DNA of 64,000 bases from Halorubrum halophilum (GTDB taxonomy: Archaea > Halobacteriota > Halobacteria > Halobacteriales > Haloferacaceae). The stretch is taken from positions 1 to 64,000 of the forward strand of contig NZ_BBJP01000002.1 in the NCBI RefSeq assembly GCF_000739595.1, read 5' to 3'. Numbering within the stretch: position 1 is the stretch's first letter; every line of letters starts with the position of its first letter. Both the position numbers and the translations under genes were made by a program. The notes beneath the pieces are model-generated. The model was not told the DNA's origin. It did not search any database and saw nothing but the letters and a program-made list of their open reading frames with translations. Positions 14,568-59,392 of this stretch are shown here, piece by piece.

Positions 14568-14598
14568 TCGGTTGTGAACGACTTCAAAGGCCCAGCCG
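14568..14598 (-). repeat. truncated 3'-end remnant of the dispersed element next to copy A
   Basis: On the minus strand this reads GGCTGGGCCTTTGAAGTCG followed by TTCACAACCG. That matches the 3'-end block of the element (CTGGGGCTTTGGAGGTG, TTCACCG) seen inside the complete copies. It lies just outside the TTATAA boundary of copy A, so two element ends are in tandem here. Confidence 0.6.
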
Positions 14599-14602
14599 CT
14601 CG

Positions 14603-14890
14603 CTTATAAATGATTGCTATCGGCGGATCGACGGTGAACTCCTCCAAAGCCCTACGGGAGGGCGGCGCACACTCGTTGCGGTCCCCAGTCGGTCGCTTCG
14701 CTCCCTCGTTGCGGTGTCGCCGGCGGCTGCCCCTTTGAGTCCCACCCCGCACCGCACAGCACCGCAGCCTCACGCCTCCCCAGCCTCGTCGGTCGCCCGT
14801 CGCTTCGCTCGGGCGACCGACTCCCTCACGGGCTCCTCGCGGGCCGATGGCCCGCTCGGAGGCGCGCCACCGCCTCGTTCAGTTATAAAT
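14603..14890 (-). repeat. dispersed structured non-coding element, copy A (shortest, partly degenerate)
   Basis: Copy A is bounded by TTATAAA boxes at 14604 and 14883. On the minus strand the order is: TTTATAA; GGTGGCGCGCCTCCGAG; hairpin 1 (GCGGGCC/GGCCCGC, 14855-14839); hairpin 2 (GTCGGTCGCCCG/CGGGCGACCGAC, 14821-14788); GAGGCTGGGGAGG; GGGTGGGACTCAAAGGGGCAG; then GGGCTTTGGAGG and TTCACCG. The large closing stem that is perfect in the other copies is weak here. There is no conserved reading frame. It fills the gap between thiQ and the zinc-ribbon gene. Confidence 0.8.
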
Positions 14891-27298: not shown

Positions 27299-27371
27299 TA
27301 GTCCATCCTGGATTCGAACCAGGGTCGTTGCCCCCAGAAGGCAACAGGATTGGCCACTACCCCAATGGACT
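27299..27371 (-). tRNA. tRNA-Gln (anticodon CTG)
   Basis: Read on minus, 73 nt. The acceptor AGTCCAT (27371-27365) pairs with ATGGACT (27306-27300), with discriminator A at 27299. The anticodon arm TTGCC/GGCAA encloses the loop TTCTGGG, giving CTG, which reads CAG. The T arm contains GGTTCGAATCC. No CCA is encoded and no intron is visible. Confidence 0.95.
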
Positions 27372-37639: not shown

Positions 37640-38923
37640 ATGGATCTCGCCATCGACGCCCCGGCCCCGGCGGCGCCCGACTGCGCCGACGACGGGACGT
37701 GGCTCGCCTGCATCGCGTGCGACGAGACGTTCGCTCCCTTCGAGGCGGTCCGGTACACCTGCGACGAATGCGACGGCCTGCTGGAGGTGCGCTACGCCGA
37801 CCCGCCGACCTTCGAGGAGTTCGGCGCGGGCGCGCCCTCCGAGGGGCCCGACCGCGGCGTCTGGCGCTACCGCGAGGCGCTCCCCTTCGACCTCGGCGTG
37901 ACGCTCCCCGAGGGCGACACCCCGCTCCACCGCGTCCCCCGGATCGAGGAGTCGGTCGGCGTCGACGCGCTCCGGATCAAACACGAGGGGATGAACCCCA
38001 CCGGCTCGTTCAAGGACCGCGGGATGACGGTGGGCGTCCGGGTCGCCGAGGAGCTGGGCGTCGGCGCGCTCGCCTGCGCCTCCACCGGCAACACCTCCGC
38101 CGCGCTCGCGGCCTACGGCGGCCGCGGCGGGATGGAGACGCTCGTGCTCCTCCCGGAGGGGAAGGTCGCCGCGGGGAAGATCGCGCAGGCGAGCCTCCAC
38201 GGCGCCCGCATCCTCGAAGTCGACGGCAACTTCGACGCCTGCCTCGACATCGTCCAAGAACTCGCCGCCCGCGGCGAGGCGTACCTGCTCAACTCGCTGA
38301 ACCCGTTCCGCTTAGAGGGACAGAAGACGATCGGCTTCGAGATACTGGAGGAGTTCCGCGACGACTACGGCGCCTTCCCGGACCGGATCGTCCTCCCCGT
38401 CGGCAACGCGGGCAACACCTCGGCGCTTTATAAAGCGTTCCGCGAACTGGTCCAATCGGGCGCGCTCGCTGTCGACGAGGTCCCCAAGCTGACCGGCGTG
38501 CAGGCCGCGGGCGCCGCGCCGATGGTCGAGGCGATCGAGGAGGGGAACGACGAGGTGCGGCGCTGGGAGGAGGTGGAGACGCGCGCGACCGCGATCCGGA
38601 TCGGCAACCCGGTCAACGCGCCGAAGGCGCTCCCCGGCATCCGGAACACCGGCGGCACCGCCGTCGCCGTCAGCGACGACGAGATCACCGACGCGCAGCG
38701 CGACCTCGCCGAGGAGGGCGTCGGCGTCGAGCCGGCGTCCGCCGCGAGCCTCGCCGGGCTCAGGAAGCTCCGTCGCGAGGGCGTCGTCGAGGACGACGAG
38801 CAGGTCGTCTGCCTGACGACGGGCCACCTCTTAAAGGACCCCGACGCCGCCTACGAGGCCGGCGGCGACCCCGAACCGGTCCCGAACGACGTGGACGCAG
38901 TCGTCGAGCACCTGCGCGACTGA
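37640..38923 (+). CDS. thrC: threonine synthase
   Basis: A 427-residue PLP enzyme that converts O-phosphohomoserine to threonine. An N-terminal zinc ribbon (WLACIACDETFAPFEAVRYTCDECDGLLEVRY) has two CxxC pairs, as in archaeal ThrC. The PLP lysine is in HEGMNPTGSFKDRGMTVGV, with the serine-rich phosphate-binding ASTGNTSAALAAYGGR and the glycine turn LPVGNAGNTSALYKAF. The C-terminus (DEQVVCLTTGHLLKDPD) is diagnostic. A TCTTAAGCC element at 37608-37616 gives a leaderless start at 37640. Confidence 0.96.
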   Translation: MDLAIDAPAPAAPDCADDGTWLACIACDETFAPFEAVRYTCDECDGLLEVRYADPPTFEEFGAGAPSEGPDRGVWRYREALPFDLGVTLPEGDTPLHRVPRIEESVGVDALRIKHEGMNPTGSFKDRGMTVGVRVAEELGVGALACASTGNTSAALAAYGGRGGMETLVLLPEGKVAAGKIAQASLHGARILEVDGNFDACLDIVQELAARGEAYLLNSLNPFRLEGQKTIGFEILEEFRDDYGAFPDRIVLPVGNAGNTSALYKAFRELVQSGALAVDEVPKLTGVQAAGAAPMVEAIEEGNDEVRRWEEVETRATAIRIGNPVNAPKALPGIRNTGGTAVAVSDDEITDAQRDLAEEGVGVEPASAASLAGLRKLRREGVVEDDEQVVCLTTGHLLKDPDAAYEAGGDPEPVPNDVDAVVEHLRD

Positions 38924-48348: not shown

Positions 48349-48356
48349 TTATAAAT
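48349..48356 (-). promoter_or_regulatory. TATA box of thpR inside repeat copy B's end
   Basis: ATTTATAA on minus lies 28-35 bases before the thpR ATG. It is also the conserved 3' boundary of the dispersed element, so element end and promoter coincide. Confidence 0.55.
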
Positions 48357-48825
48357 CGTTGATGACGTGGGGAACGATCTCGCGGCGAACACCTTCAAAG
48401 CCCCAGTCGGCTCCGGTCGATGGGCTCGCTGTCGTTCGAAAGGCGCTTCGCGCCTTTCGTGATGTCGTCAGAACGCAAAGCGTTCTGACTGCTAGCCAGA
48501 AATCTCTGATTTCTGGCGATGACGAGACGCCGAAGGCGTCTCGAACCACGCTCCTCAGTCGCTCGTTTCACTCGCTCCTTGCGGTGTCGCCGGCGGCGAA
48601 GCCGCCGGCTGCCCGTGGCGCGTAGCGCCACGCTGCTTGCGTCGCCCGTCTTCCCGGAGCCGACTGCCCCTTTGAGTCCCGCCCGACCGCACCGCACAGC
48701 CTCACGCCTCCCCAGCCTCGCGGTACGCGCTCTCTGAGCGCTCACCGCGTCCCTCGCACGCGCTCCTCGCGGCCGCCAGAGGCGGCCACTCGGAGGCGCG
48801 CGCCACCGCACGGTTCCTTTATAAA
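48349..48825 (-). repeat. dispersed structured non-coding element, copy B (longest, extra hairpins)
   Basis: Copy B runs from TTTATAAA at 48825 to the box at 48349. On minus it has GGTGGCGCGCGCCTCCGAG, hairpin 1 (GGCCGCC/GGCGGCC, 48787-48771), hairpin 2 (48748-48719, 11 of 13 pairs), GAGGCTGGGGAGG and GGGACTCAAAGGGGCAG. The closing stem is a perfect 13 bp (48666-48654 with 48416-48404). Inside this stem are several GAA/AAA-loop hairpins (48469-48487, 48524-48542, 48589-48609) and one at 48496-48516. The uvrC stop codon lies in the left boundary box. Confidence 0.82.
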
Positions 48826-50612
48826 CGCTCCCGCAAGGTCTCGGCGGTCGCGTCGCCGACACCGTCGACGTCGGTGAGGTCGTCGCGGGAGGCGTCGCGA
48901 ACGCTCTCGACCGATCCGAATCGGCGCAGGAGCCGGCGGCGGGTCTGGGGGCCGACGCCGGGCACGTCGTCGAGGACCGTCTTGACCTCGTCGCGGACGG
49001 TCTGGTGGTAGGAGACGGCGAAGCGGTGCGCCTCGTCGCGCACGCGCTGGAGCAGGTGGAGTTCGGGGGCGTCGTCGGGCCATTTTCGGGTGCCAGTCGG
49101 CGTGACGACCAGCTCCTCGGCCTTGGCGAGGGCGACGACGGGGGCGTCCCAGCCGGTCTCCGCGAGCGCGTCGCGGGCGGCCCCGAGCTGGCCCTCGCCG
49201 CCGTCGATCAGGAGGAGGTCCGGGTCGGGGCGGTCGTCCTCGCCGGCGACCGCGCGCTCGGCGCGCCACCGGACCAGCTCGCGCATGTTCGCGTAGTCGT
49301 CGTTGCGGTCGGTGAGCTTCTTCCGGCGGTAGTCGGCGGTCTCCGCGCTCCCGTCGACGAAGCACACGTCGGAGCCGACCACCGCGGTGCCCTGCGCGTG
49401 GCTCACGTCGAACCCCTCGATCCGGGCGGGGCGGTCGATCCCGAGGCGCTCGCCGAGCGCGCCGACGGGGTCCTCGCGACCGCCGCGCTTGCGGGCGTTT
49501 TTGAGGGCGAGTTCGACGAGCTTCGCCTCCCGCCCCGCGCCGGGGACGCGGACCGAGACGCCCTCCGCCTCCAGCCAGTCGACCACGTCGGAGTCGGCGG
49601 GGCGCTCGGCGAGGAGGACCGCATCCGGGAACTCCCGCTCGGCGTAGTACTGCGCGAGGAACGCGGACAGCACCGCGGCGGGGGTGTTGGCGTCCTCCCC
49701 GGCAACGTCCTCCCCGACATCGTCTCCGTCGCCTACCTCCTCGTCGTCCCCAACCGCCGCCGCGTCCAGCCGGTGTCGACTGCGGTCGACCAGCTGGCCG
49801 CGCTCGCTGTGGAGCCGGGCGACGCGGGCGGTGTCACCCTCGACGGCGGCCGCGAGCACGTCGACGGTGCGGTCGTCGGTGCGGTCGCTGACGGCCTCGC
49901 CGCCCTCGCCGTGGAACGCCTCGACCGCTTCGAGCCGGTCCCGGAGGTTCGCGGCGCGCTCGAACTCCGCGTTCTCGGCGGCGGCCTCCATCCGCCGGCG
50001 CAGGGGGTCGGCGAGGACGCCCGTCTCGCCCTCGAAGAACCGGCGGGCGGCCGCCACGTCCTCGGCGTAGCTCTCGGGGTCGATCTCGCCGGTGCAGGGG
50101 GCCGAGCAGATCCCCATCTCGTAGTCGAGGCAGGGCCGGTCGCGGTTCGCGTACTTGTGGTCGGAGCAGCCGCGAAGGAGGTACTCGTCCCGGATCGCCT
50201 TCAGGACCGTGTCCACGCGTTGCTTGTCCGTGAACGGGCCGTACGCGACCGCGCCCTCCTCGGGGTCGCGAGTCACCTCAATCCGCGGGATCGGGTGGTC
50301 CGTGATCGCGACCAGCGGGTACGACTTGTCGTCTTTCAGTCGGACGTTGTACCGCGGCCGGAGCCGCTTGATGAGGTTCGCCTCCAACAGGAGCGCCTGC
50401 GTCTCCGTGTCGGTGACCGCGAACTCGATCCGTTCGGCGCGGCCGACCATCCCCCGAATGCGCCCCGAGCGCGGGTCGGCGTACGACCTGACGCGGTCGC
50501 GGAGGTCGACCGCCTTGCCAACGTACAGCGTCGTCTCTCCCGCTCGGAACTGGTAGACGCCGGGCTCGGTCGGGAGGTCCGCGGCCCGCTCGCGCACGGC
50601 GTCGGCGTCCAT
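48819..50612 (-). CDS. uvrC: UvrABC excision nuclease subunit C
   Basis: A 597-residue dual-incision nuclease of nucleotide excision repair. The GIY-YIG domain opens the protein ([29 protein letters not shown]). A cysteine cluster ([25 protein letters not shown]) is placed like the UvrC iron-sulfur site. The UVR helix [20 protein letters not shown] and the RNase H-like endonuclease follow ([44 protein letters not shown]). Two HhH motifs end it ([35 protein letters not shown]). An acidic insert of about 35 residues sits in the middle. The TAA stop is within the TTTATAA edge of repeat copy B. Confidence 0.96.
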
Positions 50613-50720
50613 CGGATCTCCGTAGCCGCCGCGCGCGTTTGAACGCTACGGGCGGATCGCGTGGCGTCTTGTCGCCTCTCGAATCATATGATTATCAATC
50701 GTGAATAACGGAGGGGACCG

Positions 50721-50728
50721 TTTATGCG
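50721..50728 (+). promoter_or_regulatory. TATA box of the transducer gene
   Basis: TTTATGCG at this spacing (27-34 bases before ATG 50755) indicates a leaderless message and decides the start against the upstream in-frame ATG at 50701. Confidence 0.5.
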
Positions 50729-50754
50729 GGCGCTTGGGAGAGCCCCACGTAGAA

Positions 50755-52365
50755 ATGACGGGACTTCGAGAGCTGCTCCGACGCGCGTTCGGTCGGGATC
50801 GGGACTCGCGGTCGGTCCCGGACGGCGGGGTCGTCGTGGAGGGTTCGGATGACGCGACCGGAGCGAGCGCGAGCGAGGGGGACGGGTACGACACCGCGGG
50901 AGGTGACGGGGGCAACTACGCCGAGACGCTCTCCGCCGCCGGTCTCGAACAGGTGTTCAACTCGACCGGCGTCCCGACGTTCATCCTCGATAGCGAGGGG
51001 AACGTCGCCGAGTGGAACGAGTCCATCGCGTCGCTCACCGGGAACGACCGCGAGGACGCCATCGGTCACGCGCACGTCTCGGAACTGTTCTACCCCGACG
51101 GGCGGCGGGCCGACACCCTCGCCGACAAAGTGCTCGACGCGCCGGAGACCGCCGACGAGGTGTACGGCGTCGAGCGCTGCGACTCGGCGCAGACCCGCTA
51201 CCGCGACACCAGCACGATGGTCGACCGCCACGGCGACGAGAAGCACATCGAGTTCACGGCGACGCCCCTCTACGACGGTGACGAGGTCGTCGGCGTCACC
51301 GAGGTCGTCATCGACCGGACGGAGAACATCAACCAGCGGAACGCGACCGAGACGCTGGTCACGGAGATCCGCGAGACGGCCGAGTCGATCGGCGAGGGGA
51401 ACCTCGAGGCGCGGGCCGTGCGTCACGAGGAGTGCGAGATCCTCGACGAGGAGCTGTTGAGCGTTATTGGCGTCGTCAACGAGATGGCGGAGAACCTCCA
51501 GGACCTCTCCGAGAGCGTCCACGAGCAGGCCCGCCAGATCGACCAGACGGTCCAGAAGGCCAGCACCGCGGCCGCGGACATCGCCGAGAACGTCGACGAG
51601 CAGAACGAACTCCTCGAAGAGAGCGTCTCCGAGATGCAGTCCTTCTCGGCCGGCATGGAGGAGGTTGCCGCGACGGCAGACCAGGTCGACTCCGCCGCGG
51701 TCGCGGCCAGCGAGGCCGCCGACGAGGGGCTCGACGCCAGCGAGGACGCCCGCGAGGCGACCGAGGACGTCGTCGAGATCGGCGACGAGCTCGTCGAGAG
51801 CGTCGGCGCGCTCTCCGAGCGCATGGACGACATCGAGGAGGTCATCGAGGTCATCTCCGACGTGGCCGAGCAGACGAACCTGCTCGCGCTCAACGCCAAC
51901 ATCGAGGCCGCCCGCGCCGGCGAGGGCGGGGACGGCTTCGCGGTCGTCGCCGAGGAGGTGAAGAAGCTCGCCGACGAGACCCGCGGCTACACCGAGGAGA
52001 TCACGGAGAGCCTCGCGGAGCTGCAGGCGCAGTCCGACGAGACGAGCACCGCCGTCGAGCGCTCGCACGACCGCATCGAGGACGCGGGCACCGAGATCGA
52101 GACGGTGCTCGACTCCCTCGAAGATATCGCGGACGCGGTCGACGAGGCCGCCGCCGGCGTCGCCGAGGTCGCGCGAACCACGGACGATCAGGCCGCCACC
52201 GTCGAGGAACTCACCTCGTCGCTGGAGGCGGTCCGGGAGCGCTCCGACCGCACCGAGGAGGCGACCGACCGCATCGTCGACGCCACCGACGACCAGGAGA
52301 TCGCCGTCGACGAGCTGATCACCCGCGTCGAGCGGCTCGACGCGAAGCGGGACCGACGGGAGTAA
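50755..52365 (+). CDS. soluble halobacterial transducer (methyl-accepting chemotaxis type)
   Basis: A 536-residue cytosolic transducer. An N-terminal amphipathic region is followed by a PAS domain (about residues 60-190: VPTFILDSEGNVAEWNESIASLTGNDREDAIG and HIEFTATPLYDGDEVVGVTEVVIDRTEN). A HAMP-like linker comes next, then a long coiled coil with the signalling tip DVAEQTNLLALNANIEAARAGEGGDGFAVVAEEVKKLADETRGYTEEI, which docks CheA and CheW. No membrane helix exists, so the signal is intracellular, perhaps redox or metabolic through the PAS domain. Start ATG 50755 is chosen over 50701 because TTTATGCG lies 27-34 bases upstream. Confidence 0.94.
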   Translation: MTGLRELLRRAFGRDRDSRSVPDGGVVVEGSDDATGASASEGDGYDTAGGDGGNYAETLSAAGLEQVFNSTGVPTFILDSEGNVAEWNESIASLTGNDREDAIGHAHVSELFYPDGRRADTLADKVLDAPETADEVYGVERCDSAQTRYRDTSTMVDRHGDEKHIEFTATPLYDGDEVVGVTEVVIDRTENINQRNATETLVTEIRETAESIGEGNLEARAVRHEECEILDEELLSVIGVVNEMAENLQDLSESVHEQARQIDQTVQKASTAAADIAENVDEQNELLEESVSEMQSFSAGMEEVAATADQVDSAAVAASEAADEGLDASEDAREATEDVVEIGDELVESVGALSERMDDIEEVIEVISDVAEQTNLLALNANIEAARAGEGGDGFAVVAEEVKKLADETRGYTEEITESLAELQAQSDETSTAVERSHDRIEDAGTEIETVLDSLEDIADAVDEAAAGVAEVARTTDDQAATVEELTSSLEAVRERSDRTEEATDRIVDATDDQEIAVDELITRVERLDAKRDRRE

Positions 52366-52390
52366 CGCCCCGCCGGCCCCGGCTCACCCG

Positions 52391-52398
52391 TTTTTTTT
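52391..52398 (+). terminator. T-tract terminator after the transducer gene
   Basis: Eight consecutive T residues follow the GC-rich CACCCG, 26 bases past the stop codon. Oligo-T tracts end transcription in archaea. It separates this gene from the P450 promoter. Confidence 0.6.
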
Positions 52399-52457
52399 AG
52401 TTGGTCCCGTTCTCCCCGCCGCCGAACGTTTAACCCCGACGAGACCCTATTTCTCGT

Positions 52458-53867
52458 ATGTCCGCTACGCCGCCCGGACCGCACGGCGACCCCGTCTTCG
52501 GCAACGGTCGCCGGTACGCTAGCGACCCGTTCTCGTTCATGCGCGCCTGCGCCGACAGCTACGGAGACGTGGTTCGTTTCGACCTCGGCCCGCGCGAGAC
52601 GTACCTCCTGACGAACCCCGCCGACATTGAGCGCGTGCTCGTCGCCGACGCGGAGCGATACCGGAAGCCGCAGTTCGGCGACGACGCGATGGATCGACTG
52701 CTCGGGAACGGCCTTCTCATGAGCGAGGGGGAGACGTGGCAACGCCAGCGCAAACTGGCGAACCCCTCGTTCCACAACCAGCGGATCGGGGCGCTCGCGG
52801 GGACGATGGTCGACCACACCGAGTCGCAGCTCGCGGACTGGGACGACGGCGAGGTCGTCGATATCCAACTGGAGGTCGCCCGGCTCACCGTCAAGATCAT
52901 CGTCTCGGCGATGTTCGGCGCCGACATCACCGACGAGGAGGTCCGGACGGTCCAGGAGAAGCTGGAGCCGCTCGGCGCCCGGTTCGAGCCCGACCCGCGG
53001 CGCTTCCTGATCCCGGACTGGGCGCCGACCCGCGAGAACCGCGAGTTCGCCGCCGCGGTCGACACCCTCGAATCCGTGATCGACGGGATCGTCGAGCGCC
53101 GACAGGGGACCCAGCGCGACCCGAGCGTCGACCCGGCCGGCCCGGAAGGCGTCTCGGTGCGCGGCCCTGCAGGGGACGGCCAGGGTGGGGACGGGAGCGA
53201 CGACCTCCCGATGGACCTCCTCTCGGTCCTGCTCCGCGCCCGCGACCGCGGCGAGCAGACGGACGAGAACCTCCGCGACGAGCTGGTGACGATGCTACTC
53301 GCGGGCCACGACACCACCGCGCTCGCGTTGACGTACACCTTCTACCTGCTCTCGAACCACCCCGAGGCGCGGGAGCGCGTCGCAAGCGAGGCCATCGAGG
53401 CGACTTCCGGCGGCCCGCCGACTGCTACTGACGCCCGAGAGATGCGGTACACCGAACGCGTGCTCAACGAGTCGATGCGACTGTACCCGCCCGTCTACAC
53501 CCTGTTCCGCGAGCCGAAGCTCGACGTGAAGCTGGGGGGGTACCGGATCCCCGAGGGCTCCGCGCTCATGTGCTCGCAGTGGGTGGTCCACCGGTCGCCG
53601 CGCTGGTACGACGATCCCGACGCGTTCGACCCGGGTCGGTGGAAACCCGAGCGGCGGAGTCAGCGTCCGCGATTCGCCTACTTCCCGTTCGGCGGCGGCC
53701 CGCGCCACTGCATCGGGAAGTCGTTCTCGCTGCTCGAAGCGAAGCTGATCCTCGCGAAGGTCTGCTCGCAGTACGACTTGGAGTACGAGGGACCGGATCT
53801 CTCGCTGCGGGGCTCGCTGACGATGCATCCCGACCATCCGGTGCCGATGCGCATCCACGAGCGCTGA
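52458..53867 (+). CDS. cytochrome P450
   Basis: A 469-residue soluble P450. The heme loop is FAYFPFGGGPRHCIGKSFSLLEAKLILA with the cysteine thiolate near residue 418. The oxygen-activating I-helix is MLLAGHDTTALALTYTF, and the K-helix ExxR is NESMRLYPPVY. The N-terminus lacks a membrane anchor. An acidic, glycine-rich insert (PAGPEGVSVRGPAGDGQGGDGSDD) lies before the I-helix. It resembles the CYP174/CYP109-like group reported in haloarchaea; substrate unknown. Its redox partner is not in the window unless the next small Cys-rich protein helps. TATA CGTTTAACC lies at 52428-52436. Confidence 0.93.
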   Translation: MSATPPGPHGDPVFGNGRRYASDPFSFMRACADSYGDVVRFDLGPRETYLLTNPADIERVLVADAERYRKPQFGDDAMDRLLGNGLLMSEGETWQRQRKLANPSFHNQRIGALAGTMVDHTESQLADWDDGEVVDIQLEVARLTVKIIVSAMFGADITDEEVRTVQEKLEPLGARFEPDPRRFLIPDWAPTRENREFAAAVDTLESVIDGIVERRQGTQRDPSVDPAGPEGVSVRGPAGDGQGGDGSDDLPMDLLSVLLRARDRGEQTDENLRDELVTMLLAGHDTTALALTYTFYLLSNHPEARERVASEAIEATSGGPPTATDAREMRYTERVLNESMRLYPPVYTLFREPKLDVKLGGYRIPEGSALMCSQWVVHRSPRWYDDPDAFDPGRWKPERRSQRPRFAYFPFGGGPRHCIGKSFSLLEAKLILAKVCSQYDLEYEGPDLSLRGSLTMHPDHPVPMRIHER

Positions 53868-53872
53868 TCGGG

Positions 53873-54085
53873 ATGGCGGATGACGAACCGGCGTCGTACT
53901 GCCGGCGCTGCGGCGAGCGCCTCTCCCGAGGGGCCATCGCGAGCCGCCAGCGCGCCTGCTGTCTCAACGCGACCCCGATCGCCGGCGTCTGCCCGACGCA
54001 CGGACCGGTCGGGCCGCATCACGCGGTCGACGAGCCGGGTGAGAGCAACGGCGAGAGAGCGGACGAGGACCTCGATCGAGCGTAA
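53873..54085 (+). CDS. small cysteine-rich protein following the P450 (70 aa)
   Basis: Starts at ATG 53873, five bases after the P450 stop, so probably cotranscribed. CRRC (near residues 10-13), then CC and C in ACCLNATPIAGVCPTHG, could hold one zinc or an iron. The remainder is acidic and disordered. The family is not recognised. A role as a helper of the P450 is only suggested by position. It ends 15 bases before repeat copy C. Confidence 0.6.
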   Translation: MADDEPASYCRRCGERLSRGAIASRQRACCLNATPIAGVCPTHGPVGPHHAVDEPGESNGERADEDLDRA

Positions 54086-54100
54086 TCGTTTTCGAGCGTG

Positions 54101-54456
54101 TTTATAAAGGCCGTGCGGTGGCGCGCCCCGGTGAGCGGCCGTCAGGCCGCGAACCGCCGGTGCGGGGGAGTCGGTTGCCCGAAGCAACGCGGAGGGCGAC
54201 CGACGAGGCTGGGGAGGCGTGAGGTGCGGTTGCGGGCGGGTGGGACTCAAAGGGGCAGTCGCCGAGGACGCCGCAGGCGTTCACGAGAGCGGAGCTCTCG
54301 TGAGCCAATCAGAACGCGAAGCGTTCTGATGACGACGCAAGCACCGCAACGAGGGAGCGGTAGCGACCGAGTGAGGAGCGCAGCGAGCGTGCGGCGTCCT
54401 CGGCGACTGGGGCTTTGGAGGTGTTCACCGGCGATCTGCCACCAGCCATTTATAAA
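54101..54456 (+). repeat. dispersed structured non-coding element, copy C
   Basis: Copy C runs on plus from TTTATAAA (54101) to TTTATAAA (54449). Order: GGTGGCGCGCC; hairpin 1 (GCGGCC/GGCCGC, 54135-54150); hairpin 2 (54170-54180 with 54194-54204, one G-T pair); GAGGCTGGGGAGG (54205); GGGTGGGACTCAAAGGGGCAG; closing stem of 20 perfect pairs (54256-54275 with 54390-54409). Inner hairpins CACGAGAGC/GCTCTCGTG and CAGAACGC/GCGTTCTG follow, then GGGGCTTTGGAGG and TTCACCG. A second box CATTTATAAG at 54503-54512 touches the next gene's stop. Confidence 0.85.
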
Positions 54457-54506
54457 TGATCACCAGGACCTTCAGACGTATCTACCGACCACCCACCACG
54501 AACCAT

Positions 54507-55103
54507 TTATAAGTCGATCGACGCAGCGACCTCGCGGAACTCCGGGTCGTACAGGTCGAGCGCGTGGACGCGCCACCGGATCGGGTCGAACTCGGCGGCC
54601 ACGAGGTCGGCGACGACGCCCGACTCGGGACTGCCACCGCGAGCCACGGTGACGTGCGGCACGTAGTCTTCGCCCTCGATCCCCTCAATCGCGCCGTACG
54701 CGGCGCAGAGCCGGCGGTGGATCCGGACGAGCGCGTCGCTCTCGACGGTCAGATAGAGCACGGGTCCCGACCCCGACGCGGGCGCGTCGAAGACGTCGAG
54801 TCCCGTCACGGCGACCGGGAAGGGGTCGGTTCCCGCGAGCAGCGGGCGGAGGTCGTCGCGCAGGGCGTCGAGCGCGTCGGGTTTGGGCGGTGACGGTCCG
54901 CGGGTGGGAGAGCCGGGCGACGCGTCCGCGCCGCCCCCGCCCCTCTCGTCGCTCGCGACGCGGTCCGGTACGTCCTCGACGCCGAACCGCTTGCAGACGA
55001 GCGTGCGTCGATCGCGGACCCGATCGAACCCCGAGGGTTTCGACTGGAGATCCGCTGCGAGACGGTCAACGGCGGGCGCGATCGGGACGTTCAGGCTGAA
55101 CAC
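54507..55103 (-). CDS. 2H-phosphoesterase (LigT-like) with one catalytic motif altered
   Basis: A 198-residue member of the 2'-5' RNA ligase-like family. The second HxT motif is intact (HVTVARGGSPESGVV near residue 150). At the place of the first, the sequence is RRTLVCKRFG, with arginine where a histidine would be expected. If real, this removes one of the two catalytic histidines. Between them is an acidic, proline-rich insert (ERGGGGADASPGSPTRGPSPPKP). The start MFSLNVPIAPAVDRLAADLQ is good. The TAA stop is within a TTATAA box at the end of repeat copy C's region. Activity is therefore uncertain. Confidence 0.78.
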   Translation of the reverse strand: MFSLNVPIAPAVDRLAADLQSKPSGFDRVRDRRTLVCKRFGVEDVPDRVASDERGGGGADASPGSPTRGPSPPKPDALDALRDDLRPLLAGTDPFPVAVTGLDVFDAPASGSGPVLYLTVESDALVRIHRRLCAAYGAIEGIEGEDYVPHVTVARGGSPESGVVADLVAAEFDPIRWRVHALDLYDPEFREVAASIDL

Positions 55104-55106
55104 GCC

Positions 55107-55310
55107 TCAGATCCGATCGGTGAGCCGTAACGCGATCAGTACGACGATCACGACGGCGATCAACGTTGGGATGGCGTCTAAGAGCGCGAACGTGAGATCG
55201 AGTACCGCTCCGAAGATCTCCACGAGAAGCCACACGACCGCGAGTACGAGGATCAGCTTCAGGAGGTCGTCGACGTCTACGTCGGCCCGGTCCGCGTCTG
55301 TTCGGTCCAT
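55107..55310 (-). CDS. small two-helix membrane protein (67 aa)
   Basis: From ATG 55310, MDRTDADRADVDVDDLLKLILVLAVVWLLVEIFGAVLDLTFALLDAIPTLIAVVIVVLIALRLTDRI. A short acidic head leads into two long hydrophobic segments (about residues 17-38 and 44-63). It lies four bases upstream of the 2H-phosphoesterase start, so one operon is likely. The family is not recognised with certainty. Confidence 0.68.
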   Translation of the reverse strand: MDRTDADRADVDVDDLLKLILVLAVVWLLVEIFGAVLDLTFALLDAIPTLIAVVIVVLIALRLTDRI

Positions 55311-55376
55311 ACCGAGAGCGACGACCGCGACGGGCAAAAAGACCACCGGGGGAGCGTCACGTTGCGCGATCAGATG

Positions 55377-55384
55377 TTTAAAAA
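55377..55384 (+). promoter_or_regulatory. TATA box of serB
   Basis: TTTAAAAA lies 24-31 bases before the serB ATG at 55408, giving a leaderless transcript. Confidence 0.55.
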
Positions 55385-55407
55385 CCTCTCCACGTCGAAC
55401 GAACTCC

Positions 55408-56052
55408 ATGAGCCTCATCGCGTTCGACTTCGACGGCACGCTCTCCGACTCCGAGATGACGGTCCTGCTCGCCCGGCGCGCGGGCGTCGCCGACGAGGTG
55501 GCCGAGATCACGGAGCGGGCGATGAACGACGAACTCAGCTACGCCGAGAGCCTCTATCAGCGCGCGGCGCTGCTCGACGGGCTCGACGAGGACGAGGTCG
55601 CGGCCGCGTTCGGCGAGGTGGCGCTCCGGCCGGGCGCCGGCGAGCTGATCGAGCGCCTGCAGGCCGAGGGCCACCACGTCGCCGTGCTCACGGGCGGGTT
55701 CGAGCGCGGCGTCGAGCGCGCGCTCGCGAAGCAGGGCGTCGAGGCCGACACGATCGTCGCCAACCGCCTCCCGATGGCCGGCGGAGCGCTCACTGGCGAG
55801 GCCGAGGGCCCCCTCATCGAGGGGACGAAAGACGACGCGCTGGCCGAACTCGCCGACGACCTCGGGATTCCGATGAGCGAGACGGTCGCGATCGGCGACG
55901 GCGCGAACGACCTCCCGATGTTAGAGGTCGCGGGGCTCGCCGTCGGATTCGTCCCCAAGGACGCGGTCCGGCCGGTGTGCGACGCCGTCGTCGCTTCGAT
56001 GTTCCGGCTCGGGAAGGTGTTAGAGGGGTACGACGTGCTCCCCGCGGAGTAG
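55408..56052 (+). CDS. serB: phosphoserine phosphatase
   Basis: A 214-residue HAD-fold phosphatase, last step of the serine pathway begun by SerA at 42149. Motif I is IAFDFDGTLSDSE (DxDGT with the nucleophile Asp7), motif II is VAVLTGGFERGVERAL, and motif III/IV is VAIGDGANDLPMLEVAGLAVGF. The cap region has RRAGVADEVAEITERAMNDELSYAESLYQRAALLDG, which fits SerB (R-E-like cap glutamate). Length is right for SerB without an ACT domain. An upstream frame to 54883 is non-coding in character. Confidence 0.92.
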   Translation: MSLIAFDFDGTLSDSEMTVLLARRAGVADEVAEITERAMNDELSYAESLYQRAALLDGLDEDEVAAAFGEVALRPGAGELIERLQAEGHHVAVLTGGFERGVERALAKQGVEADTIVANRLPMAGGALTGEAEGPLIEGTKDDALAELADDLGIPMSETVAIGDGANDLPMLEVAGLAVGFVPKDAVRPVCDAVVASMFRLGKVLEGYDVLPAE

Positions 56053-56188
56053 TCGGCGACCGACTGTGGGGAGAGGGGCAACGAGTGCGATCCCACCGAC
56101 CGGCGGACACGGGCACACTGTTTGGATGGACCCTTAATAAGCGCCGGAGCGAAGATCGGTTTATGAACGGCATTGTTGGGGTGATCCG

Positions 56189-57025
56189 ATGCTGCCGACG
56201 CTGACGTATCTGCAGTTTCACCTCGTGTTCAGCCTCCCCGTACTCGCGGCCCTGTGGTACGTCGCGCCGCGGTACGACGCCGTCCGCCGGCGACGCGCGA
56301 CGGCCGGGATCGCGATCCTCGTCGCGATCGCGTACGCGTACACGACGCCGTGGATCAGCTACATGATCCGGCAGGGCGCGTGGTCGTACGCCGACGGCGC
56401 GGTGCTCGTCCGGGCGCTGTCGATCCCGCTCGGCGAGTACCTCTTTTTCACCGTGCAGACCGTCGTCACCGCGTTCGCGCTCCATCTGATCGGTTTCGAC
56501 CCGACGTTCCGTGACGGGGACTTCGACCGAGGACCCCGGATCGCCGGCGTCGTCGTCGGGGTCGCGATGGTTCCGGTTGGGCTCTGGCTCCTCTTTCGTG
56601 ACCCGTCGTTCCTCTACCTCGGCGGGCTGATCGCGTGGGTCGGGCCCGTGCTCGCGCTCCAGTGGGCCGTCGGCGGCGGCTACCTCGTCCGCACTCCCCG
56701 AATGTGGCTCACTGCGACGCTTCTGCCGGCGGCGTACTTCTGGATCGCGGACCGGATCGCGATCGGGATGGGGACGTGGCACCTCTCTGCCGAGCTCACA
56801 ACCGGCGTCGCCGTTCTCGGGCTCCCGATCGAGGAGATGCTCTTCTTCCTCTCAGCCGGCGTGATGACCGTCAACGGGCTCGTGCTGTTCGAATGGGTTC
56901 TCGACTGGAACGACCGCCGGAAGGTGGCCGACGCGCCCGCGGAGGCGGGCGATGAGACCGGCTCCGACGGCACCGACATCGACGACGCCGAAACCGATCA
57001 CGCTCTCGAACCGAGCGATGACTGA
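56189..57025 (+). CDS. crtY: lycopene cyclase (CrtYcd type)
   Basis: A 278-residue membrane enzyme that closes the ends of lycopene to beta-carotene. It is a fused CrtYc-CrtYd heterodimer-type cyclase: YLQFHLVFSLPVLAALWYVA and PLGEYLFFTVQTVVTAFALHL in the first half, and WHLSAELTTGVAVLGLPIEEMLFFLSAGVMTVNGLVLFE in the second. The PxE(E)xxFF motif occurs twice. Seven membrane helices are expected, and the last 40 residues are an acidic tail. It overlaps the next gene by eight bases (ATGACTGA). TATA GTTTATGA (56159-56166) suits the ATG. Confidence 0.93.
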   Translation: MLPTLTYLQFHLVFSLPVLAALWYVAPRYDAVRRRRATAGIAILVAIAYAYTTPWISYMIRQGAWSYADGAVLVRALSIPLGEYLFFTVQTVVTAFALHLIGFDPTFRDGDFDRGPRIAGVVVGVAMVPVGLWLLFRDPSFLYLGGLIAWVGPVLALQWAVGGGYLVRTPRMWLTATLLPAAYFWIADRIAIGMGTWHLSAELTTGVAVLGLPIEEMLFFLSAGVMTVNGLVLFEWVLDWNDRRKVADAPAEAGDETGSDGTDIDDAETDHALEPSDD

Positions 57026-58067
57026 GGCGACGGCACAAGCGGATCGGCTCTTCGCGCTGTACCCGGCGCTGGCGCTCGCCGCACTGCTGCCGATCGGCGC
57101 CGCAACCCCTCTGTTTCCGGTCGAACTCGGCGTCGCGGCGTTCGCGCTGGGGACGCTCGTCGTCGGGATGGCGCACGGCGCGGTGGATCACCTCGTCCCG
57201 CTGCGGGCGGCGCCAGGGGTCTCGCTCCGCCGGTCGATCGCGGTCGTCTCGGTCGCCTACGCGGTCCTCGGCGGGGCGGTCGTCGCCGCGTTCTTCGTCG
57301 CACCGGTCGCCGCGTTCGCCGGGTTCGTCGCGCTCACGTGGCTCCACTGGGGGCAGGGAGACGTGGCCGCGCTCGCGCTCGCGGGCGTCGAACACCTCCC
57401 GACCTCGGCGGAGCGCTGGCTGGCCCTCGTCGTCCGCGGCGGGCTTCCGATGGGCGTCCCGCTCCTCTCCCACCCGGAGGAGTATCGGCTGGTCGCGGAG
57501 TGGGTCGTGGGGCTGTTCCTCGTCGAGCCGGGCGCGGCGCCGGCCGCGACCGCGGTCGACCCCCTGTTCGTCCCGGCGACGCGGCTGGCGGTCGGCGGGA
57601 TCGTGATCGCGGCGACGCTCGCGTCGGTCGGACTGGGGTACGCGCGGGTCCGCAGGGGCGCCTCACGGCGCGGATGGCTCCGCGACGCCGGCGAGGTGGG
57701 GGTGCTGTGGGCGTGGTTCCTGCTCGCGGCGCCCGTCTTCGCGATCGGGGTGTACTTTGCGCTCTGGCATTCGCTCCGGCACGTGGGGCGGCTGGTTCTC
57801 GTCGATCCGGACGCGGCGGCCGCGCTCGGGGAGGGTGACACTCGGCGGGCACTGGGGCGGTTCGCCCGCGACGCGGCCCCGCTCACGCTCGGGGGGTTCG
57901 TCGCGCTCGCCGGCGTCGGGATCGCGGCCCCGGCCGGGATCGCCGCGCCGGGCGACCTGCTCGCGGCGTCGCTTGTCGGCATCGCGGCGCTGACGCTCCC
58001 GCACGTCGTCGTCACCGCGTGGCTCGACCGGCGGCAGGGGGTGTGGCGGCCGGATTCGGCGGCGTGA
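57018..58067 (+). CDS. blh: Brp/Blh-type beta-carotene 15,15'-dioxygenase
   Basis: A 349-residue membrane protein that cleaves beta-carotene to two retinals for opsins. Histidine motifs of the family are present: MAHGAVDHLVPL (HGAxDH), FVALTWLHWGQGD, FALWHSLRHVGRL and LPHVVVTAWLDRR. Several hydrophobic helices span the protein. ATG 57018 is inside the last codons of crtY, so the pair is translationally coupled, the standard Brp/CrtY layout. It implies rhodopsin genes elsewhere on this genome. Confidence 0.92.
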   Translation: MTEATAQADRLFALYPALALAALLPIGAATPLFPVELGVAAFALGTLVVGMAHGAVDHLVPLRAAPGVSLRRSIAVVSVAYAVLGGAVVAAFFVAPVAAFAGFVALTWLHWGQGDVAALALAGVEHLPTSAERWLALVVRGGLPMGVPLLSHPEEYRLVAEWVVGLFLVEPGAAPAATAVDPLFVPATRLAVGGIVIAATLASVGLGYARVRRGASRRGWLRDAGEVGVLWAWFLLAAPVFAIGVYFALWHSLRHVGRLVLVDPDAAAALGEGDTRRALGRFARDAAPLTLGGFVALAGVGIAAPAGIAAPGDLLAASLVGIAALTLPHVVVTAWLDRRQGVWRPDSAA

Positions 58068-58089
58068 GCGTGCCGGCGAGAACGAGCCG

Positions 58090-58989
58090 TCACTCCCACC
58101 CCGGCGTCCCGGGCGCACCCGCGTCGTCCTCCAGTTCGCGGACCAGCCGCTCGCGGTCGTCCGAGTCGATCGCGACCGGGTCGCCGTCGCCCGCGGCCCG
58201 CTCGCTCCACGCCCGGATCGCGCGTCCGGCCCACGAGTCGGCGTCTCGGGCGCGGGCGCGAGCCGCGGCCATCCGGTCGCGATCGACGGAGAGCGAGCCG
58301 GGACTGGAGCCGACCGCCGCCCCGACGAACCGGGCGCGGTCGTCCGTGGTGAGTCGCTCGGCTCGGAGCCGGTCGATCACGCCGTCGAGGTCGCCGGGAG
58401 CGGGATACGCGAAGACCGTCGCGCCGGCGGCGCGGGGACCGAACGGGAGCGGCGGAGTGTCGTCGGGCACCGCGTCGTCGAGGAGGCGGTCGCCGCCGCC
58501 GGCGGCCTCGACGCGCTCGCACTCGGTCTCGGCGTCGAGTTCGAGGCTGTGAGCGGGGTACGTCGAGCAGGTCCGCGGGTAGCGCTCGTCGCCGTGGATC
58601 CGGCACTGAAGCGTGATCGGATCGAGAAAGACGCAGGCGCCGAGCCAGCGGTGCTCGTCGGTGCCGATCGGCGCGACCGGCTTCGGGGGCTTTCGCAGAC
58701 CGACCGCGAAGACCGGACGGTCGCCCGCGGCGGCGGCGACCTCGACGCCGTCGATTCGGACCGAACCGTCGCCCTCGGCGGGTTCGAACAGTCGGGGGAC
58801 TAACACGTCGCCGAGACCGTCGTCGAGGAACCCAGCGATCTCGTCGCGCGTGAGCGGCACGAGGTCGTAGGCGTCGTCGAGCGGCGGGCGGCTACCGGTG
58901 CGGTCGGAGCCGGCCGCGTCGGGCGCGAGCGGTCGCCAGTCGACGCAGCAGCCGGCACAACCCTCGCAACGGAGTTCCATCGTGATCAC
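58090..58989 (-). CDS. YkgJ-family cysteine-cluster protein
   Basis: A 299-residue protein of the CxxCxxCC zinc/iron cluster family. The N-terminal MELRCEGCAGCCVDWRPL has C-x2-C-x2-CC, with the other ligands in GACVFLDPITLQCRIHGDERYPRTCSTYPAHS. The remainder is helical and acidic with no catalytic motif. Family members are thought to bind metal clusters; function not known. GTG 58989 or ATG 58980 are both possible; CTTTTAAG at 59010-59017 suits either. Its promoter side borders repeat copy D. Confidence 0.82.
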   Translation of the reverse strand: MITMELRCEGCAGCCVDWRPLAPDAAGSDRTGSRPPLDDAYDLVPLTRDEIAGFLDDGLGDVLVPRLFEPAEGDGSVRIDGVEVAAAAGDRPVFAVGLRKPPKPVAPIGTDEHRWLGACVFLDPITLQCRIHGDERYPRTCSTYPAHSLELDAETECERVEAAGGGDRLLDDAVPDDTPPLPFGPRAAGATVFAYPAPGDLDGVIDRLRAERLTTDDRARFVGAAVGSSPGSLSVDRDRMAAARARARDADSWAGRAIRAWSERAAGDGDPVAIDSDDRERLVRELEDDAGAPGTPGWE

Positions 58990-59041
58990 CCGTGAGAACG
59001 ATTCGCACGCTTAAAAGGGATCGCCAGGGGTGAGAGGATAC

Positions 59042-59392
59042 TTATAAATGAACGAGGCGGTGGCGCGCCTCCGAGCGCCCCAAGGGCGCGAGGAGCCCGC
59101 GAGGGAGTCGGACCGGCGCAGATGCGCCGGTCCGACGAGGCTGGGGAGGTGTGAGGTGCTGTGTGGTTGCGCGTGGGTGGGACTCAAACGGGCAGCCGGT
59201 GAGGCGGGCGCAGGCGTTCACGAGAGCAGAGCTCTCGTGAGCCAATCAGAACGCGAAGCGTTCTGATGACGACGGAAGCACTGGAAGGAGCGAACGGGGT
59301 GAGCGACTGAAACGCGCAACGAACGTGCGCCCGCCTCACCGGCTGGGGATTTGGAAGTTCTCACCGTCGATCTATAGTCAGCCATTTATAAG
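59042..59392 (+). repeat. dispersed structured non-coding element, copy D
   Basis: Copy D is on plus from TTATAAATGA (59042) to TTTATAAG (59385). Hairpin 1 GCGCCC/GGGCGC (59075-59089); hairpin 2 GTCGGACCGGCGCA/TGCGCCGGTCCGAC, 14 perfect pairs (59107-59136); GAGGCTGGGGAGG (59137); GGGTGGGACTCAAACGGGCAG. The closing stem is 20 perfect pairs of wholly different sequence from copy C (59193-59212 with 59326-59345). Inner hairpins at 59219-59239 and 59247-59265 are nearly the same as in C. Ends in GGGGATTTGGAAG and CTCACCG. Confidence 0.85.

What the first reader, a model, noticed from the sequence alone, without database searches (positions are those of the whole stretch)
48349..59392. Four copies of a non-coding element whose stems covary: a candidate structured RNA or foldback element family
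Copies A (14603-14890), B (48349-48825), C (54101-54456) and D (59042-59392) share short conserved blocks: GGTGGCGCGCC(TCCGAG), GAGGCTGGGGAGG, GGGACTCAAA, and a CTTTGGAGG-like end. Between the blocks the sequences differ but always pair. The closing stem is CAGTCGCCGAGGACGCCGCA in C, CAGCCGGTGAGGCGGGCGCA in D and CAGTCGGCTCCGG in B, each with a perfect complement (54390-54409, 59326-59345, and on the other strand in B). Hairpin 1 has arms GCGGCC, GCGCCC, GGCCGCC and GCGGGCC in different copies. Hairpin 2 differs in all four and always sits directly before GAGGCTGGGGAGG. Kept pairing with changed bases is strong evidence that the fold is selected, whether as an RNA or as palindromic DNA. No reading frame is conserved. 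I do not recognise a named family. A relation to palindrome-associated elements (PATEs) of haloarchaea should be tested.
Basis: partly seen in the sequence, partly recalled or inferred. Interest (0 to 1): 0.88.

Follow-up and report, generated by a model that had tools for sequence, protein, structure and literature searches.

The report
Haloarchaeal repeat family with exchangeable hairpins
The four copies belong to a non-coding repeat, present more than a hundred times in some salt-loving archaea, that keeps a fixed folded core and swaps its hairpins between copies; it matches no RNA family in the library we searched, and whether it is transcribed, or serves the cell or only itself, is still open.

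Summary
A-D belong to a family with 95 distinct copies fetched from this genome and at least 150 on one complete chromosome. All 52 genomes of the genus (Halorubrum) match, as do 108 of 345 sampled genomes of the class outside it; Rfam does not match it. Constant parts: TTATAA flanks in Halorubrum; helix P1 with a tandem G.A/G.A mismatch; GAGGCTGGGGAGG; GGGACTCAAAGGGG pairing with GGGGCTTTG (C/G in Halorubrum, G/C elsewhere). Pairing across copies is far above controls. But "kept pairing = each fold selected base by base" does not follow: hairpins are replaced as whole cassettes, copies at orthologous sites are hardly more alike than unrelated ones, and hairpin types assort freely. Best reading: a non-autonomous, transposon-like structured repeat that sits at TTATAA, whose plus strand folds and whose hairpin cassettes recombine. 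A PATE relation is not supported (copy number does not follow Y1 transposases). RNA against DNA is open; transcription was not testable. New variant of a known kind.

The parts
14603..14890 (-). Copy A, TTATAA to TTATAA (14604-14609 and 14883-14888); closing stem P3 broken; an extra tail unit follows at about 14577-14603
   Evidence: (CM 14727-14874, 117 bits)
48349..48825 (-). Copy B, TTATAA to TTATAA (48349-48354 and 48819-48824), with several nested hairpins in P3; lies just after the 3' end of gene 48819-50612 (-)
   Evidence: (CM 48664-48810, 106 bits)
54101..54456 (+). Copy C, TTATAA to TTATAA (54102-54107 and 54450-54455), between convergent genes 52458-53867 (+) and 54507-55103 (-)
   Evidence: CM 54114-54258, 125 bits
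59042..59392 (+). Copy D, TTATAA to TTATAA (59042-59047 and 59386-59391); core boxes slightly decayed (AAACGGG, GGGGATTTGG)
   Evidence: (CM 59056-59195, 113 bits)
54205..54217 (+). Invariant G-rich box GAGGCTGGGGAGG of copy C
59137..59149 (+). Invariant G-rich box GAGGCTGGGGAGG of copy D
59107..59136 (+). Hairpin P2 of copy D, an exchangeable cassette; nearly the same hairpin sits at site C of L312
54256..54409 (+). P3 of copy C: closing stem CAGTCGCCGAGGACGCCGCA...TGCGGCGTCCTCGGCGACTG with a nested double hairpin
59193..59345 (+). P3 of copy D: closing stem CAGCCGGTGAGGCGGGCGCA...TGCGCCCGCCTCACCGGCTG with the same kind of nested double hairpin

Best explanation
It is a non-autonomous, transposon-like dispersed repeat of haloarchaea whose plus strand folds, as RNA or as single-stranded DNA. 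Anatomy in Halorubrum: TTATAA - about 8-12 nt - P1 (GGTGGCGYG..., tandem G.A/G.A inside) - CGAGGGA - P2 - GAGGCTGGGGAGGNGTGAGG - G/T-rich linker - GGGACTCAAAGGGG - P3 - GGGGCTTTGG - about 31 nt - TTATAA. Shown: copy number, class-wide distribution, conserved blocks, TTATAA at both ends of most copies, element-free sites with a single TTATAA, presence at the same intergenic sites in other species, and reassortment of hairpin cassettes between constant blocks. Inferred: (1) copies enter or leave at TTATAA by an enzyme I have not identified; (2) hairpins are broken at replication or cut, and repaired from other copies (resident or incoming) through the constant blocks, which swaps hairpins as units and keeps the blocks alike; (3) the folded strand is what the unknown mobilising or processing protein recognises. 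I do not think the family is essential to the host, because copy number varies strongly within the genus and single sites are lost.
For: 52 of 52 genus genomes match; 154 of 391 class genomes in 37 of 86 genera, 46 of them in the genus (many outside matches are single and weak). TTATAA within 80 nt upstream in 128 of 194 full genus copies, 97 of them starting 14-18 nt before GG(T)GGCG, and within 100 nt downstream in 133, of which 98 at 28/31/34 nt; background 0.034 per 100 nt. L369 is a copy of a surrounding MITE without the core, with one TTATAA at its place. L109 is an element-free orthologue of site C with one TTATAA. Same sites in 20 relatives, by CM: C in 15 of 20 (one partial), D in 8 of the 9 with both flanking genes, B in 7 of the 16 with both (one partial). 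Orthologous against non-orthologous copies, 27 of 32 parsed: P1 .739/.736, P2 .619/.603, P3 .575/.570, linker .630/.657, tail .665/.650; 51-956 of 1000 shuffles reach these differences. P1 and P2 types independent: 65 of 77 parsed own copies, 312 of 2000 shuffles reach the observed association; P2/P3 1401, P1/P3 630. Close pair L125/L127 (gene 95.4%): P2 .96, tail .78, but P1 .42 and outer P3 arms .65. That P3 matches another species at another site at 96%, the best other scored copy of its own genome at 88%. No orientation preference among co-directional genes, 23 against 19 (home-made gene finder); random strand (72/78) and spacing in G021.
Against: No partner found: among 467 predicted flanking proteins the largest group is in 5 loci, and Y1 transposases do not follow copy number. 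No target duplication clearly extends beyond TTATAA, and other genera lack TTATAA there (0 of 19), so TTATAA may be a lineage trait or a conserved end. L369 and L109 could be deletions between the flanking repeats (in the MITE these share about 13 bp). No match in viral contigs (exact pattern) or phage records (query D), one partial Halorubrum plasmid hit: odd for an active mobile element. Boxes at orthologous sites deviate from consensus by 1-5% per site while fourfold sites of flanking genes differ by 17-39% between species (model-detected copies only): this may be host selection instead of homogenisation. A stricter parse (20 of 32 copies, which dropped P2 of the tandem-G.A type) gave orthologous P2 slightly more alike.687/.649, 19 of 1000. 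Independence tests have few copies. Conversion tracts in Haloferax volcanii are long, 600 bp nearly always co-converted (PMC8223754, abstract), which sits badly with 50-nt swaps.
Confidence: 0.55

Rival explanations
1. A functional structured RNA family: each copy is transcribed and its RNA (P1 with sheared G.A pairs, G-rich core perhaps forming a quadruplex in molar KCl, P3) serves the host, in trans or as a local processing or termination signal.
For: Strand-specific tandem G.A/G.A in 141 of 188 Halorubrum copies and 5 of 18 of other genera, T.C/T.C 0; C-G to G-C switch next to AAAG/CTTT: 223 of 225 C/G in Halorubrum, 24 of 25 G/C elsewhere; G.U over A.C in P1, 25 to 6 distinct contexts, and a G.U share in P1 (96 of about 1450 cells) like that of tRNA stems in the same loci (15 of 221); boxes conserved across families by eye; slow box divergence.
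Against: No orientation bias to genes, no BRE-like run before TTATAA. Hairpin loops not purine-biased (358 of 682 loop bases, crude scan). G.U share in P3 about 2-3% (79 of 2547 outer pairs; 23 of 989 in a count that favours perfect arms). G.U = A.C in P2. Only 9-28 matches in seven genomes of the genus (60 candidates scored, two incomplete genomes) and sites are lost.
Confidence: 0.27
2. A DNA-level element only: palindromes act as cruciforms or protein sites in the chromosome (BIME/REP-like), and perfect arms are kept by template switching or inverted-repeat correction at replication, without any RNA.
For: P3 arms nearly all Watson-Crick (2395 of 2547 pairs); G.U = A.C in P2; 39 of 95 copies between convergent genes.
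Against: The tandem G.A is strand-specific and G.U exceeds A.C in P1; no chromosomal polarity or regular spacing.
Confidence: 0.12
3. A PATE: a remnant of IS200/IS605-type transposons mobilised by their Y1 transposase.
For: Haloarchaeal, non-coding, hairpins near the ends, terminal-only relics and nested small hairpin elements resemble what PMC3119063 describes (passages read).
Against: 11 of 52 genus genomes have no Y1 match, and 9 of these 11 still have at least 49 copies (the other two, G020 and G034, are low), while low-copy genomes G025, G029, G037, G041 and G049 have one or two Y1 matches. TTATAA at both ends. This tests present co-occurrence, not past mobilisation.
Confidence: 0.06

Closest known systems
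PATEs of Haloquadratum walsbyi (PMC3119063, passages)
   Same: Haloarchaeal, non-coding, high copy, palindromes near the ends, very heterogeneous sequence, terminal-only relics, targeted by small hairpin elements
   Different: TTATAA at both ends in Halorubrum; large constant G-rich core; class-wide; copy number does not follow Y1 transposases
Prokaryotic MITEs (review PMC10969869, passages)
   Same: Short, intergenic, non-coding, high copy, candidate target motif TTATAA
   Different: No good terminal inverted repeat of the core, no cognate transposon found, much richer fold; a separate true MITE of about 150 bp surrounds many copies in this genome (G-box within 700 nt of 26 of 30 MITE ends read)
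REP/BIME elements (PMC3733652, passages)
   Same: Dispersed extragenic palindromes with changing but complementary stems; possible RNA or DNA role
   Different: REPs are 20-40 bp with a GTAG or CGTC tag; here 288-477 bp in the window, with several helices and constant boxes
ERIC and similar structured intergenic repeats (recalled, not tested)
   Same: Dispersed, intergenic, whole-element fold
   Different: Not compared with any tool

Membership tests
PATE | Too short to code for a transposase | tested here: met
   288-477 bp in the window, no conserved frame
PATE | Palindromes close to the termini | tested here: met
   P1 starts about 10 nt inside the 5' TTATAA, the P3 arm ends about 45 nt before the 3' one
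PATE | No terminal inverted repeats, no target duplication | tested here: inconclusive
   TTATAA at both ends, no clear identity beyond it; may be a 6-bp duplication or a conserved end
PATE | Near-terminal palindromes related to IS605-type transposon ends | not tested
   No library of IS605 ends at hand
PATE | Link to IS200-type (Y1) transposase | tested here: inconclusive
   Present copy number does not follow Y1 (9 of 11 genomes without Y1 have at least 49 copies); past mobilisation not tested; the PATE paper notes disrupted tnpA genes too
MITE | Terminal inverted repeats shared with an autonomous transposon | tested here: inconclusive
   Only palindromic TTATAA plus a weak GCGGTG similarity by eye; flanking proteins show no common family; no search for a distant autonomous copy
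MITE | Target site duplication | tested here: inconclusive
   TTATAA once in L369 and L109, at both ends in filled sites
Known Rfam RNA family | Match above gathering score | tested here: not met
   (only sub-threshold hits, E 0.67, in 10 loci)
Structured RNA | Covariation beyond shuffled and slid controls | tested here: met
   but rows are related and cassettes are exchanged, so significance beyond phylogeny is not established
Structured RNA | A discrete transcript | not testable with these tools
   no expression data
REP/BIME | 20-40 bp palindrome with GTAG or CGTC tag | tested here: not met
   size of the copies; tag not seen as a constant end in the aligned boxes

The most novel reading that the evidence does not exclude
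A class-wide haloarchaeal RNA machine: every copy makes a structured RNA whose four conserved G-tracts (GCTGGGGAGG, GGTGGGACT, AAAGGGGC, TGGGGCTTT) meet in a quadruplex core braced by P1 (sheared G.A) and P3. The hairpins are replaceable arms, shuffled through a genus-wide pool by recombination, so that the family evolves like a sexual population of RNA genes.
Probability: 0.2. Interest if true: 0.92.

Novelty: new variant of a known kind. Interest (0 to 1): 0.68.

Why it matters
A structured element with one copy per about 20 kb in a complete chromosome, matched in 37 of 86 sampled genera of its class, is not in the RNA library searched, and seven paper searches found no description. It is a warning for covariation screens: strong between-copy covariation can come from exchange of whole hairpins rather than from compensatory mutation at fixed loci. 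It also offers a natural system for ectopic recombination of short cassettes in polyploid archaea, and a test case for RNA against DNA selection on folds.

Tried and rejected
Rejected or weakened: Rfam families; cis-regulatory UTR element (no orientation bias); promoter reading of TTTATAA; polar chromosome motif such as a segregation or Chi-like signal (strand and spacing random); partner gene in cis (proteins were only compared with each other); Y1 transposase dependence; donor from the same genome for the one swapped P3 tested (best other scored copy 88%). My first G.U 42 against A.C 7 on A1 was inflated by subfamily inheritance; counted as distinct events it is 25:6 in P1, 10:4 in P3, and 8:8, 4:4 or 0:2 in P2, and looser folds gave P1 64:28, P2 13:16, P3 70:62. 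The P1 count uses an alignment fitted to a model with G.U as a pair, which favours G.U; the P3 count keeps only arms with at most 2 non-Watson-Crick pairs, which lowers G.U.

Mended on checking: searches (orthologous against other copies; module association) used parsers that cut some hairpins wrongly. One search repeated both with a parse that was too strict (20 of 32 and 63 copies; P1/P2 association then reached by 134 of 2000 shuffles, orthologous P2 excess by 19 of 1000); one search is the version cited (27 of 32 and 77 of 95 copies; L313 at site D and the partial copies of L312 at B and L313 at C were left out beforehand). Conclusions and odds did not change.

Limits: 61 of 95 copies entered A1 (those without long inserts). 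One search counts 34 copies, among them L313 at D and the partial L312 copy at B. Independence tests use only types seen at least 3 times. The genus name is inferred: unnamed G030 has the same contig position and score as named Halorubrum sp. SD626R. Paper searches cover open-licence papers only.
Full report
The observation. The genome has many more: 62 blastn pieces match D, and 165 places match GAGGCTGGGGAGG with at most one mismatch against 29 for the reversed pattern. I kept 95 distinct copies of 96 G-box hits.

Anatomy. The alignment of 61 copies (A1) has invariant boxes GAGGCTGGGGAGG and CAAA.GGG.AG and near-invariant GCGGTGG and CGAGGGA, with hairpins between them. P1 is an outer helix, a short middle helix, a G.A/G.A step and an inner hairpin; P2 is a hairpin directly before the G-rich box; P3 is the long closing stem, often with nested hairpins. 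A last helix pairs AAAG with CTTT around P3: the adjoining bases are C/G in 223 of 225 Halorubrum copies and G/C in 24 of 25 copies of other genera, a two-sided change, though probably one event. In Halorubrum most copies carry TTATAA at fixed distances at their ends (128 of 194 upstream, 133 of 194 downstream). Tail units are repeated in tandem after several copies.

Spread. The model built from A1 (R1) hits 52 of 52 genomes of the genus, most of them at the 60-candidate limit, with seven low genomes: G037 17, G020 16, G025 13, G041 9, G029 11, G034 25, G049 28. At class level 154 of 391 genomes and 37 of 86 genera have a match, 46 of the genomes being of the genus; many of the others have one weak match. 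Eight genomes of other genera, chosen for strong matches, have 3-51, with the same order of boxes and hairpins in the 19 loci read by eye. One complete chromosome has at least 150 copies, on both strands (72/78) and randomly spaced. Viral contigs (exact pattern) and phage records (query D) gave none. With D, 23 plasmid records match, one a partial Halorubrum copy and the listed others short pieces mostly over the nested hairpins; queries from other genera found copies on plasmids of Haloarcula, Halobaculum, Natribaculum, Halorussus and others.

Structure statistics. On 112 copies of several genera, 17 of 18 pairs change on both sides; cells paired are 93.8% against 74.2% shuffled and 16-60% slid. 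This alignment is fitted to the model, and its rows are related. Signs of a plus-strand fold: tandem G.A/G.A in 141 of 188 P1 helices of Halorubrum and 5 of 18 of other genera, T.C/T.C in none; G.U over A.C 25 to 6 in P1 contexts; a G.U share in P1 of 96 in about 1450 cells, like the 15 of 221 in tRNA stems of the same loci. Signs against RNA selection: G.U equals A.C in P2 (8:8; 4:4 and 0:2) and is rarer in P3 (79 of 2547); loop bases are not purine-biased (358 of 682, crude scan). I leave RNA against single-stranded DNA open.

How the hairpins change. Twenty relatives gave the region orthologous to 44-64 kb. By CM the element is at site C in 15 of 20 (one partial), at D in 8 of the 9 with both flanking genes, and at B in 7 of the 16 with both (one partial). 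L109 is a site C without the element and with one TTATAA; L310 (site C), L309 (site B) and L315 (site D) show relics; L313 and L318 have other DNA at B, and L314, L315, L321 and L324 have no element at C. Yet copies at the same site are hardly more alike than copies at different sites of different species: P1 .739/.736, P2 .619/.603, P3 .575/.570, tail .665/.650, with 293, 91, 352 and 51 of 1000 label shuffles reaching the difference (27 of 32 copies parsed; a stricter parse of 20 gave a slight P2 excess, 19 of 1000). P2 of window site D and of site C in L312 are nearly the same, as are P2 of site B in L317 and site C in L318. In L125 and L127 (gene 95.4% identical) P2 is .96 and the tail .78 identical, but P1 .42 and the outer P3 arms .65, no better than between unrelated copies (.72). 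The P3 of L127 matches a copy elsewhere in another species at 96%, but the best other scored copy of its own genome at 88%. In this genome P1, P2 and P3 types combine without detectable association (312, 1401 and 630 of 2000 shuffles, 65, 32 and 28 copies). So whole hairpins are exchanged within a pool that is at least partly genus-wide; kept pairing between copies follows from that and is not proof of selection at each copy.

Mobility. Evidence for: TTATAA ends; one copy of a surrounding MITE (L369) without the core and with a single TTATAA at its place; strong copy-number differences within a genus (9 of 60 scored candidates in G041, 150 of 150 in G021). Evidence against: no common gene among 467 predicted flanking proteins (largest group in 5 loci); no dependence on Y1 transposases (9 of 11 genomes without Y1 keep at least 49 copies); no clear duplication beyond TTATAA; TTATAA absent in 19 of 19 copies of other genera; the element-free sites could be deletions.

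Selection. Against the consensus the boxes deviate by 1-5% per site at orthologous sites, while fourfold sites of flanking genes differ by 17-39% between species. Homogenisation by exchange and selection both explain this; only copies found by the model were counted.

Verdict. I hold it most likely to be a non-autonomous, transposon-like repeat with a folding plus strand and recombining hairpin cassettes (0.55), next a functional RNA family (0.27), then a DNA-only palindromic element (0.12) and a PATE (0.06). Papers: PMC3119063, PMC10969869, PMC3733652 and PMC6011602 were read in passages, PMC8223754 in abstract and outline.

Noticed in passing
G000 contigs, 53 places of GGGAGTRNGTRTTGCAG with at most 1 mismatch, control 1; L356-L385: A MITE of about 150 bp with inverted ends close to TTGATCGATAGCGGGAGTGGGTAT; of the 30 loci read, 26 have the G-box of the core within 700 nt, L369 is without core, L358 stops at a contig end, L366 and L368 hold relics.
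   Followed up: partly
window 54280-54338 and 59217-59273 (about): A nested double hairpin (TTCACGAGAGC..GCTCTCGTGAGCCAATCAGAACGC..GCGTTCTGATGAC) inside P3 of C and D; similar stretches at about 82-93% identity on plasmids of Natrinema, Haloterrigena, Haloferax and others (15 of 23 records listed).
   Followed up: partly
L166 and L105, downstream of the element: The P3 end with GGGGCTTT/GAGGGCTTT is repeated three to four times in tandem (period about 57 nt in L166, 21 nt in L105), also outside Halorubrum.
   Followed up: no
G037, G020, G025, G041, G029, G034, G049: Low-copy genomes of the genus (9-28 matches of 60 scored); a gene absent from these and present in the others would be a candidate mobilising factor. 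G029 and G034 are incomplete genomes.
   Followed up: no
window 10287-10357, 27299-27371, 38626-38718: Three ARAGORN tRNA calls lack Rfam support (one search finds only 514-586); two of them (10287-10357, 38626-38718) lie inside predicted genes; probably false.
   Followed up: no
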